Source of the DNA: a virus
Strand: one strand, 5' to 3'
IMG/VR virus record: IMGVR_UViG_3300020147_000015
Coordinates: 1 to 43,871 of that record
DNA length: 43,871 bases
Shown here piece by piece: positions 14,395 through 16,206 of the stretch. The notes beneath the pieces are model-generated. The model had not been told where the DNA came from and made no database searches. It saw nothing but the letters and a program-made list of their open reading frames with translations. Both the position numbers and the translations under genes were made by a program. The number at the start of each line of letters is the position of its first letter. Position 1 is the stretch's first letter.

Positions 14395-14424
14395 GTTGCA
14401 AATTGCAACGTGCCGTGCGATAGA
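14395..14424 (+). promoter_or_regulatory. Candidate promoter and dyad before the Y RNAs
   Basis: A perfect inverted repeat GTTGCAA-A-TTGCAAC lies at 14395-14409. Its left arm supplies a -35-like TTGCAA (14396-14401), followed after 17 bases by GATAGA (14419-14424), a weak -10. The implied start, about 14431, coincides with the 5' edge of the first Y RNA-like fold. The dyad could bind a regulator, possibly the HTH protein encoded after rsr; that link is inference. Confidence 0.4.
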
Positions 14425-14430
14425 TGATTT

Positions 14431-14504
14431 GCCAATCGTGGTGAAGGTGACGGCTACTTCTTTCTGGTAGAAACGACGCCGTTTCCGCTTGTTCCCGAAT
14501 GGTT
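14431..14504 (+). ncRNA. Y RNA-like RNA 1 (compact)
   Basis: About 74 nt. Outer stem: CCAATCG-T-G (14432-14440) pairs with C-C-CGAATGG (14494-14502), seven pairs in nine. Inner stem: ACGGC (14450-14454) with GCCGT (14478-14482), then a small hairpin loop (CTAC/GTAG). Between them lie 5' TGGTGAAGGTG and 3' CGCTTGTTCC, the region corresponding to the Ro-binding helix of Y RNAs; GAAGGU and CUUG also occur at the equivalent places in human Y RNAs. No tRNA-like part. It would bind Rsr as a ring-blocking or adaptor RNA. Confidence 0.65.
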
Positions 14505-14507
14505 CAT

Positions 14508-14653
14508 AACCGCAGGCGTGGCGTAGAGTTCGGTTACTTCGCTTTGGGAGCCAGAGGTCGCGGGTTCGAATCCCGTCATCCTGATACAGGATGTAGCTCA
14601 GTTGGATAGAGCGCTGATACGTTCCGAGTTCGCTTGTTCCCGCCTGCGGTTTT
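14508..14653 (+). ncRNA. yrlA: Y RNA-like RNA 2, YrlA type with tRNA mimic
   Basis: About 146 nt. The ends pair perfectly over 11 bp (14508-14518 with 14641-14651) and end in TTTT. The Ro-binding-type strands TGGCGTAGAG and CGCTTGTTCCCG match RNA 1. The distal part is a permuted tRNA: variable-loop AGGTC (14555-14559); T-arm GCGGG-TTCGAAT-CCCGT (14560-14576); acceptor-like 7-bp stem CATCCTG/CAGGATG closed by ATA (14577-14593); TA at positions 8-9; D-arm GCTC-AGTTGGATA-GAGC (14596-14612); and CTG/CAG at the anticodon-stem position (14614-14616 with 14552-14554). YrlA RNAs of bacterial Ro loci have this organisation. Confidence 0.78.
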
Positions 14654-14678: not shown

Positions 14679-15980
14679 ATGCGCCTGAATACCGCAATGA
14701 ACATCCCCCGCCAGTATACGCATGAAGGTGCGCCGGCCAAATTCATCTCGCCGGAAATGCAGCTTCGCCGCTCCGTCCTGTCCTGCCTCCTTTGGGAGAA
14801 GGAGTTCTACGAGGACGGCAAGGACATTGCTTCCCGGATCCTGGAAGCCGCCGTGACCGTTGATGCTGCAACGGTCTCCGCTCTGGCGGTAGAGGCTCGC
14901 AACATTCATGGCCTTCGCCATGTCCCGCTCCTGCTGCTCACTGACCTGATCCGCCGTGGTGGGGCTGGAGTTGCAGACACGATTGCGGACACTATCCGTC
15001 GCGCCGACGAAATGGCAGAACTCGTGTCGATCTATTGGAGGGGAGGCAAGAAGCCGCTTTCCAAGCAGATGAAGCTTGGGCTGGCAAAGGCGTTCGGGAA
15101 GTTCTCGGAATATCAGCTCGCCAAGTATGATCGCGAGGGACCGGTTCGGCTGCGCGATGTTCTCTTCCTTGCCCATCCGAAGCCGGCCGACGAGGAGCAG
15201 GCGGCGCTATTCAAGCGCGTGGCTGAGCGCCGGCTTGTGGCGCCAGATACGTGGGAGGTTTCTCTGTCGGGAGGTTCCGATAAGAAGGAAACGTTCGAGC
15301 GCCTTATTCGGGAAGGAAAGCTTGGCTACCTCGCCCTGCTTCGAAACCTTCGCAACATGATGGACGCCGGTTGCGACCGACAGCTTGTGTCCGATGCCAT
15401 CGTGGCGCGGAAAGGTGCTGAGCTTGTATTCCCGTTTCGTTATGTCGCTGCGGCCCGAGCTTGCCCGCAGTTGGAGCCGGTGATCGATCAGGCGCTCTGT
15501 GAGGCTGTCGCGTCTGGCCCTCGACTGTCCGGCGTAACTGCCGTTCTTGTCGATGTTTCCGGCTCGATGGACACCAAGTTATCTGGGAAGTCGGACCTGA
15601 CGCGCCTTGATGCCGCAGCCGCTCTCGGTTCAGTCGTGAACGGGGATATTCGGGTCTTCACTTTCTCGGAGCGCGTGGTGGAGGTGCCGCCTCGCCGGGG
15701 CATGGCTGGGGTCGATGCCGTTATCAGATCACAGCCCCATTCGGGAACCTATCTCGGAGCGGCAATCGATCTGATCAATCGGCAAGTGCCGCATGATCGG
15801 CTGATCGTCATCACGGATGAACAGTCCCATGACCGGGTGACGGACCCGATCGCAAAGAAGGCCTATATGATCAATGTTGCTTCTGCAAAGAACGGCATTG
15901 GCTATGGGAAGTGGGTCCACGTTGACGGGTTCAGCGAATCCGTTATCCGCTACATCCATGAGTCCGAGAATGAGCGGTGA
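14679..15980 (+). CDS. rsr: Ro60/Rsr protein (TROVE + von Willebrand A)
   Basis: 433 residues from the ATG at 14679 (GGAGA, 6-nt spacer); an ATG at 14667 would add four residues. The N-terminal two thirds are helical TROVE repeats (FYEDGKDIASRILEAAVTVD, EARNIHGLRHVPLLLLTDLI, KLGYLALLRNLRNMMDAG), forming the ring that binds Y RNA outside and misfolded RNA ends inside. The C-terminal vWA domain keeps a complete MIDAS: D292-x-S294-x-S296 (VDVSGSM), T357 and D380. It is about 100 residues shorter than well-studied Ro proteins. In bacteria Rsr works with exoribonucleases such as PNPase in RNA decay and rRNA maturation. Two Y RNA-like RNAs lie directly upstream, and an HTH gene overlaps its end. 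Confidence 0.93.
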   Translation: MRLNTAMNIPRQYTHEGAPAKFISPEMQLRRSVLSCLLWEKEFYEDGKDIASRILEAAVTVDAATVSALAVEARNIHGLRHVPLLLLTDLIRRGGAGVADTIADTIRRADEMAELVSIYWRGGKKPLSKQMKLGLAKAFGKFSEYQLAKYDREGPVRLRDVLFLAHPKPADEEQAALFKRVAERRLVAPDTWEVSLSGGSDKKETFERLIREGKLGYLALLRNLRNMMDAGCDRQLVSDAIVARKGAELVFPFRYVAAARACPQLEPVIDQALCEAVASGPRLSGVTAVLVDVSGSMDTKLSGKSDLTRLDAAAALGSVVNGDIRVFTFSERVVEVPPRRGMAGVDAVIRSQPHSGTYLGAAIDLINRQVPHDRLIVITDEQSHDRVTDPIAKKAYMINVASAKNGIGYGKWVHVDGFSESVIRYIHESENER

Positions 15981-16206
15981 TGAACTGAAAGAGGCCGGCA
16001 TAAGGCTTTTTGGCGAGCGCGGGTGGCAATCAGCGCTTGCTGCGCATTTGGGCGTGGATAGGACCCAGATCTGGCGCTATGTGTCGAATGATAAGGTTCC
16101 GGGACCTGTGGCTGCTGCGGTTTCATGCTGGCTGAAGTCTGGAGCGCCCGTCACTTCGGCGTCTGAAGCCACGCAATTGCCTTCAGAACATCCTCATAGA
16201 ATTTGA
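15970..16206 (+). CDS. Small HTH protein coupled to rsr
   Basis: 78 residues from the ATG at 15970, overlapping the rsr stop by 11 nt. The segment RLFGERGWQSALAAHLGVDR then TQIWRYVSNDKVPGPVAAAV is a helix-turn-helix of the kind found in small alphaproteobacterial regulators. Translational coupling to rsr suggests that it controls, or is controlled with, the Ro locus. Its 3' end runs 56 nt into the convergent minus-strand gene at 16151-16405. Confidence 0.7.
   Translation: MSGDELKEAGIRLFGERGWQSALAAHLGVDRTQIWRYVSNDKVPGPVAAAVSCWLKSGAPVTSASEATQLPSEHPHRI

What the first reader, a model, noticed from the sequence alone, without database searches (positions are those of the whole stretch)
14552..14616. 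Circularly permuted tRNA mimic inside the second Y RNA
The order is variable loop AGGTC, T-arm with TTCGAAT loop, a perfect 7-bp acceptor-like stem closed by an ATA triloop, TA at positions 8-9, D-arm with GG in its loop, then the anticodon-stem position. All elbow elements (G18/G19-like and T54-T55-C56-like) are present, but the 3' half precedes the 5' half and there is no free CCA end. This is the YrlA architecture. An RNA of this shape could attract tRNA-modifying enzymes or tRNA-processing factors to the Ro particle.
Basis: partly seen in the sequence, partly recalled or inferred. Interest (0 to 1): 0.85.

Follow-up and report, generated by a model that had tools for sequence, protein, structure and literature searches.

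The report
Phage Y RNA hiding a rotated tRNA
A bacterial virus carries, just before its gene for a Ro60-like RNA-binding protein, a small RNA containing a whole transfer-RNA shape, anticodon loop included, with its halves in swapped order and its amino-acid end sealed shut, so it probably acts as a tRNA look-alike that cannot be charged.

Summary
Window 14552-14616 holds, in order, variable loop, T-arm, a perfect 7-bp acceptor-like hairpin (ATA loop), TA and D-arm. It is the effector module of a Y RNA (14508-14651) that follows a minimal Y RNA (14432-14502) and ends 28 nt before a Ro60/Rsr gene (14679-15980) in a temperate phage contig. Rfam YrlA matches it (54.7 bits, below the 69-bit cut-off), and circular permutation of YrlA relative to tRNA is already published. 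So the core is a known kind. An anticodon arm (14541-14554, nominally Pro UGG) is closed by three bases after the D-arm (14614-14616), so the break lies inside the 5' strand of the anticodon stem, where the Y stem is inserted. This rests on 96 related modules: covariation across the break, U33 in 49/51 loops, a covarying Levitt pair, and 59/59 preselected modules called tRNA by ARAGORN after rotation. Acceptor ends are sealed mostly by GNRA/UNCG tetraloops, which argues against a hidden tRNA gene. Five GenBank phage 'tRNAs' beside rsr genes are mis-called Y RNAs. Function (docking surface, or decoy for tRNA-acting host enzymes) is inferred.

The parts
14395..14430 (+). putative promoter of the Y RNA-rsr unit: palindrome GTTGCAAATTGCAAC (14395-14409) overlapping a -35-like TTGCAA (14396-14401), 17-nt spacer, -10-like GATAGA (14419-14424)
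   Evidence: sequence; a similar GTTGCAA...TGCAAC motif lies at about the same distance before the first Y RNA in L002, L003, L004, L006, L008, L026. Not found by the consensus scanner; inference
14432..14502 (+). Y1: minimal Y RNA; outer stem CCAATCG/CGAATGG, TGGTGAAG, inner stem GTGACGGC/GCCGTTTC, loop TACTTC...GAAACGAC, CGCTTGTTCC
   Evidence: minimal Y RNAs with this core found in about 58 of 101 related rsr loci
14508..14651 (+). Y2: Y RNA with tRNA-mimic module; outer stem S1 14508-14518/14641-14651, boxes TGGCGTA 14519-14525 and GCTTGTTCC 14632-14640, inner stem S2 14526-14533/14624-14631
   Evidence: Rfam RF02553 14530-14646; S2 has changes on both sides in 8 of 8 pairs
14541..14554 (+). 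anticodon arm, 3' part: G30 C31, loop TTTGGGA 14543-14549 (nominal anticodon UGG, Pro), G39 C40 C41 A42 G43
   Evidence: closest real tRNAs are phage tRNA-Pro
14555..14559 (+). variable loop AGGTC (C48 matches G15, Levitt pair)
   Evidence: Levitt pair covariation
14560..14576 (+). T-arm, loop TTCGAAT (U54 U55 C56 G57 A58)
14577..14593 (+). acceptor-like stem, 7 bp, sealed by ATA triloop
14594..14612 (+). TA (8-9) and D-arm GCTC-AGTTGGATA-GAGC with G18 G19
14613..14616 (+). G26 and C27 T28 G29, which close the anticodon stem by pairing with C41 A42 G43 (14552-14554)
   Evidence: 27-28/42-43 paired in 28/28 aligned sequences, with changes on both sides; 63/81 in a fixed register against a shuffle maximum of 33
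14679..15980 (+). rsr: Ro60-like protein, TROVE + vWA, 433 aa, ATG 14679, RBS-like GGAG just upstream
   Evidence: PF05731 and PF13519, phrog_850, profile matches to PDB Ro60 and D. radiodurans Rsr chains

Best explanation
The feature is the effector module of a YrlA-type Y RNA (Y2) encoded with a minimal Y RNA (Y1) and rsr in a temperate phage. Shown by sequence and comparison: the module is a complete tRNA-like fold (anticodon, variable, T, acceptor and D elements) read in circularly permuted order. The Y stem is inserted in the 5' strand of the anticodon stem and the two acceptor ends are joined by a tight cap. Inferred: the Y stem is bound by the phage Rsr ring, and the tRNA-like module projects from it as a docking surface that cannot be charged, for proteins that recognise tRNA elbows and anticodon loops (tRNA-modifying enzymes, PNPase or other RNA-processing factors). 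It would tether them to Rsr or occupy them as a decoy during infection. Identity and architecture about 0.9; tethering or docking in some form about 0.55; a specific partner cannot be named.
For: RF02553 match. rsr 28 nt downstream. Mimic modules beside rsr in about 70 of 101 related loci and in Mycobacterium, Streptomyces and Deinococcus loci. All seven chromosomal genomes with RF02553 matches at E<=1e-9 have a TROVE-protein gene beside them. Named structure: 97% of cells paired, 24 of 28 pairs with changes on both sides, 0/500 shuffles as good, partner-slid controls 30-46% paired. Levitt pair 71 G-C plus 10 A-U of 96, shuffle maximum 76 in 20,000. Fixed-register 27-28/42-43 paired in 63/81, shuffle maximum 33; U33 49/51, purine 37 48/51, A38 46/51. 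Rotated, 59/59 preselected modules are called tRNA by ARAGORN with the predicted anticodon; mismatched halves 36%. Tetraloop caps 34 GNRA + 11 UNCG of 59, chance 4.7%.
Against: No transcript, Rsr-binding or partner data. The match is below Rfam's gathering score. Folding energy alone does not predict the anticodon pairing in the window: C27-G29/C41-G43 has probability 0.00 and a competing local hairpin about 0.5. That competitor (CUUUGG/CCAGAG) is not conserved in relatives with the same loop (L003 and L004, sequences). The 59 modules were preselected for at least 4 anticodon-stem pairs, U33 and purine 37, so 59/59 is partly by construction; one search is the test without that selection. 28 of 96 modules stay unclassified. 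The window's own cap is a triloop, not a tetraloop.
Confidence: 0.72

Rival explanations
1. A permuted tRNA gene: the RNA is cut out, ligated and opened at the acceptor loop to give a working tRNA, as in Cyanidioschyzon merolae.
For: Complete tRNA with anticodon arm; all 59 rotated modules look like tRNAs; permuted tRNA genes exist in that red alga (PMC3400036). A few related modules keep CCA in the acceptor loop (L007, L035, L036, L038).
Against: Acceptor ends are joined by 3-4 nt in 71/96 modules, and 45 of 59 tetraloops are GNRA or UNCG, leaving no room for discriminator, CCA and leader. Nominal Ser and Leu anticodons mostly sit in short-variable-loop bodies. The anticodon-masked body does not match the nominal isotype (10/59 in the top three). 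The Y stems covary and sit beside rsr. Bacteria lack the archaeal/eukaryotic splicing endonuclease (general knowledge).
Confidence: 0.04
2. A remnant of a tandem tRNA pair or a decayed tRNA, with no function.
For: The same order occurs across the junction of tandem tRNA-Pro genes, and the mimic matches the tRNA-Pro|tRNA-Pro junction of Streptomyces phage Wakanda at 79% over 76 nt. This is a credible origin.
Against: Covariation in six helices and in a tertiary pair, sealed caps, enclosure in a Y stem and linkage to rsr in most loci show maintained structure.
Confidence: 0.02
3. An ordinary (open) YrlA in which 14552-14554/14614-14616 is just the short stem leading into the Y domain and the upstream TTTGGGA is an unstructured linker.
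For: Open-type modules exist in the same arrays (12 classed open, e.g. in L017, L051, L069, L092); the RF02553 consensus has no anticodon loop; energy models do not form the arm in the window.
Against: Upstream 29-31/39-41 pairs covary (41 of 81 all paired, shuffle maximum 20), U33, purine 37 and A38 are nearly invariant and A34 is almost absent (1/51).
Confidence: 0.12
4. A decoy or sponge against host anticodon nucleases or other tRNA-attacking defences (a special case of the docking model).
For: Complete anticodon loops with varied anticodons, different ones side by side in arrays (nine loci with two). Salmonella YrlA has been proposed as a competitive inhibitor of an anticodon nuclease (PMC7790460), and phage-encoded tRNAs can overcome tRNA-cleaving defence (PMC11455837).
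Against: No partner or assay; the anticodons are spread over many isotypes, which gives no hint of one nuclease; complete-type modules also occur in chromosomal rsr loci, so the role need not be anti-defence.
Confidence: 0.15

Closest known systems
YrlA (Rfam RF02553; Salmonella YrlA, PDB 6CU1), reported as circularly permuted relative to tRNA (PMC11472068)
   Same: permuted order T-arm, sealed acceptor-like hairpin, D-arm; Y stem; encoded beside an rsr gene
   Different: carries a complete anticodon arm with a 7-nt loop, where the RF02553 consensus and a review's description (D, T and acceptor arms only; PMC8394870) show none; scores below the gathering cut-off; different boxes in the Y stem (UACUUC, CUUGUUCC)
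Minimal bacterial Y RNAs such as the Deinococcus radiodurans Y RNA that tethers Rsr to PNPase
   Same: Y1 (14432-14502) has only a Y stem and a short loop; an Rsr-family gene is adjacent
   Different: Y1 lacks a tRNA module; binding to Rsr or PNPase is untested
Circularly permuted tRNA genes of Cyanidioschyzon merolae
   Same: 3' half precedes 5' half; complete tRNA when rotated
   Different: acceptor ends sealed by a 3-4 nt cap, embedded in a Y RNA, no room for CCA
tmRNA and viral tRNA-like structures
   Same: tRNA mimicry by a non-tRNA
   Different: tmRNA has a free, chargeable CCA end; this one has none and is permuted

Membership tests
YrlA (RF02553) | covariance-model score at or above the gathering cut-off (69 bits) | tested here: not met
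   54.7 bits, E 2.3e-11, full length 1-114; none of 30 related records reached the cut-off either; therefore described as a YrlA-type variant, not an Rfam-grade member
YrlA (RF02553) | T-arm, acceptor-like hairpin and D-arm in permuted order | tested here: met
YrlA (RF02553) | closed by a Y stem with an internal loop | tested here: met
   S1 11 bp, S2 8 bp, conserved boxes
YrlA (RF02553) | encoded next to a Ro60/rsr gene | tested here: met
YrlA (RF02553) | modified by DusA and TruB; bound by Rsr | not testable with these tools
   U54 U55 C56 R57 A58 present; biochemistry needed
tRNA | free 5' and 3' acceptor ends, CCA end | tested here: not met
   ends joined by ATA; ARAGORN negative in native order
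tRNA | all four arms and core tertiary pairs | tested here: met
   only after rotation
permuted tRNA gene (C. merolae type) | intervening sequence that can be removed to expose the acceptor ends | tested here: not met
   3-nt cap; relatives mostly carry GNRA/UNCG tetraloops
Ro60/Rsr protein | TROVE domain plus vWA domain | tested here: met
   PF05731 47.6 bits, PF13519 28.7 bits; profile match to 9l5y (TROVE protein), 9nen and 1yvp (Ro60) and 2nvo (Rsr)

The most novel reading that the evidence does not exclude
Phage (and some chromosomal) Ro60 operons encode arrays of Y RNAs whose modules are complete, sealed, uncharged tRNA copies with different anticodons. They work as tethered decoys or bait for host enzymes that read or cut anticodon loops, so Ro60 RNPs would be a tRNA-directed counter-defence or tRNA-repair platform.
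Probability: 0.2. Interest if true: 0.85.

Novelty: new variant of a known kind. Interest (0 to 1): 0.55.

Why it matters
The permutation itself is already known for YrlA. The new point is that many of these RNAs carry an entire tRNA, anticodon loop included, and that related phages carry different anticodons, sometimes two in one array. That turns a loose suggestion (YrlA as competitor of an anticodon nuclease) into a direct test: change the loop and see what binds or is protected. It also shows that some annotated phage tRNAs beside Ro60 genes are not tRNAs, which matters for counts of phage tRNA repertoires.

Tried and rejected
1) Isotype concordance: with the anticodon loop masked, the nominal isotype was among the top three real tRNAs in only 10 of 59, so mimicry of specific isoacceptors is not supported in general (exception: Glu modules of L032/L033). 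2) Folding energy as proof of the anticodon arm failed. 3) A loose structural descriptor was not significant alone (8 hits in 20 shuffles). 4) A second permutation isomer was sought in all loci; only L007 shows it, and it could be a near-ordinary tRNA (5/7 ordinary acceptor pairs). 5) Primary YrlA papers (PMC4201824, PMC6281776, PMC6047535, PMC10870794) are not held, so I cannot exclude that anticodon-bearing YrlAs were described there. 7) RNAalifold predicts T, acceptor, D and S2 but not the anticodon pairs; those were tested by naming the structure.

Full report
What is there. The window is a 43.9-kb virus record with integrase, Bet/RecT-like annealing protein, portal, head and tail genes, so a temperate phage. 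Two Y RNAs lie between small ORFs and an rsr gene: Y1 14432-14502 and Y2 14508-14651. The start codon of rsr that fits the RBS and the relatives is ATG 14679. Pfam TROVE and vWA, phrog_850 and profile matches to solved Ro60/Rsr chains support the protein.

The reported feature. T-arm, acceptor hairpin and D-arm are in the minimum-energy fold. A strict descriptor hits once in the window and 0 times in 1000 shuffles. Rfam YrlA covers 14530-14646 at 54.7 bits, under the 69-bit cut-off; no related record reached it either. ARAGORN sees no tRNA.

Family. Searches with the Rsr protein gave 24 viral, 6 genomic and then 80 viral loci and 89 phage records. Their Y RNAs share a core: S1, GTGGYGWAG, S2, UUACUUC, module, S2', CGCUUGUUCC, S1'. 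Automated parsing found 96 unique tRNA-mimic modules; about 70 of 101 loci have one, 58 have a minimal Y RNA, 41 both, 22 two or more mimics. A few parsed modules are doubtful, so these counts are approximate.

The anticodon arm. Upstream of the variable loop most modules carry 2-3 bases, a 7-nt loop and five bases. The inner pairs of the anticodon stem form with the upstream bases and the outer two or three with the bases following the D-arm. In the window: C27 T28 G29 (14614-14616) plus G30 C31 (14541-14542), loop UUUGGGA (14543-14549), then G39 C40 C41 A42 G43 (14550-14554): five perfect pairs. In a fixed register without optimisation, 27-28/42-43 are both paired in 63 of 81 modules (shuffle mean 21.3, maximum 33 of 5000) and 29-31/39-41 in 41 (mean 9.5, maximum 20). 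Loops with at least four pairs have U33 in 49/51, purine 37 in 48/51, A38 in 46/51 and A34 in 1/51. On a 28-sequence alignment, the across-break pairs hold in 28/28 with changes on both sides. Rotated into tRNA order, 59/59 modules preselected for at least four pairs, U33 and purine 37 are called tRNA with the same anticodon; mismatched halves 36%; native order 14/59. Energy models do not favour this arm in the window, so the claim is comparative.

Tertiary fold. Position 15-48 is G-C in 71 and A-U in 10 of 96 (shuffle maximum 76 in 20,000). T-loop TTC and D-loop GG were search criteria, so their presence is not independent evidence. The sequences are related, so shuffle counts overstate significance somewhat; the spread over phages of different hosts and the slid-partner control reduce that concern.

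Sealed ends. 59 caps are tetraloops, 34 GNRA and 11 UNCG (chance 4.7%). This argues against release of a tRNA 3' end. A few relatives keep CCA inside larger caps, a possible trace of tandem tRNA ancestry. The window mimic matches the tRNA-Pro|tRNA-Pro junction of phage Wakanda over 76 nt at 79%, and a single tRNA-Pro of phage S-SCSM1 in two pieces.

Open and complete types. Twelve modules are of the open type, where the anticodon stem leads directly into the Y domain; four phages have both types by this parser. Complete types also occur in a Mycobacterium prophage and a Streptomyces phage and in chromosomal rsr-linked RF02553 loci, so the variant is not restricted to this phage clade. The RF02553 consensus has no anticodon loop and a review names only D, T and acceptor arms. 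The primary papers could not be read.

Mis-annotation. GenBank tRNA features that overlap these mimics, lack CCA and have a permuted hairpin or D-arm downstream: 10KY502B tRNA-Thr, Kikimora tRNA-Ser, CcrColossus tRNA-Gln, Alone3 tRNA-Ser(gct), prophiGD43A-5 tRNA-Thr. True phage tRNA-Leu controls have CCA and 7/7 ordinary acceptor pairs.

Mechanism. Known: D. radiodurans Rsr is tethered by a Y RNA to PNPase (PMC7790460) and YrlA is modified by DusA and TruB (PMC8394870); YrlA has been suggested as a competitor of an anticodon nuclease (PMC7790460). Inference for this phage: Rsr binds the Y stem and the sealed tRNA presents an elbow and anticodon loop to host tRNA-binding proteins. Which protein, and whether the outcome is tethering or decoy, is open. 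The anticodon differs between relatives and the tRNA body does not follow it, so a precise isoacceptor target is not supported.

Comparison with known systems. Circular permutation of YrlA relative to tRNA is published (PMC11472068). The finding as first stated is therefore a new member of a known kind; with the complete anticodon arm it is a variant.

Noticed in passing
L032 2879-2946, L034 2772-2846, L035 2146-2213, L144 1863-1936, L150 2817-2895: GenBank tRNA features next to rsr are mis-called Y RNA mimics (no CCA; sealed acceptor hairpin or D-arm downstream).
   Followed up: yes
L007 2741-2870: A Y RNA module with a different cut: acceptor strand plus CCA in a hairpin (TTCCGGC-A-CCA-AT-GCCGGAA), then D-arm, full anticodon arm (UAC), variable loop, T-arm; break between T-arm and acceptor. 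Only one case found.
   Followed up: partly
L036 2787, L038 2743, L035 2652: Permuted mimics with a long variable arm and Leu-type D-arm, i.e. class II tRNA look-alikes.
   Followed up: partly
L013 1652-1757, L027 1467-1577, L034 2624-2757, L016 2910-3023: Y RNAs with a T-arm flanked by plain hairpins and no D-arm: partial mimics.
   Followed up: no
window 14519-14540: The Y core GGCGTAGAGTTCGGTTACTTC can be read as a D-arm (TAG, 4-bp stem, GG loop), which may explain why tRNA finders call ordinary tRNAs over these RNAs.
   Followed up: no
L142 4365-4945 and L150 1705-2138: BrnT-type toxin/antitoxin genes lie next to rsr in both a Deinococcus plasmid and a Mycobacterium prophage.
   Followed up: no
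window 15970-16206: Small HTH-like ORF overlapping the 3' end of rsr (phrog_12501 HTH match), a candidate regulator of the palindrome before Y1.
   Followed up: no
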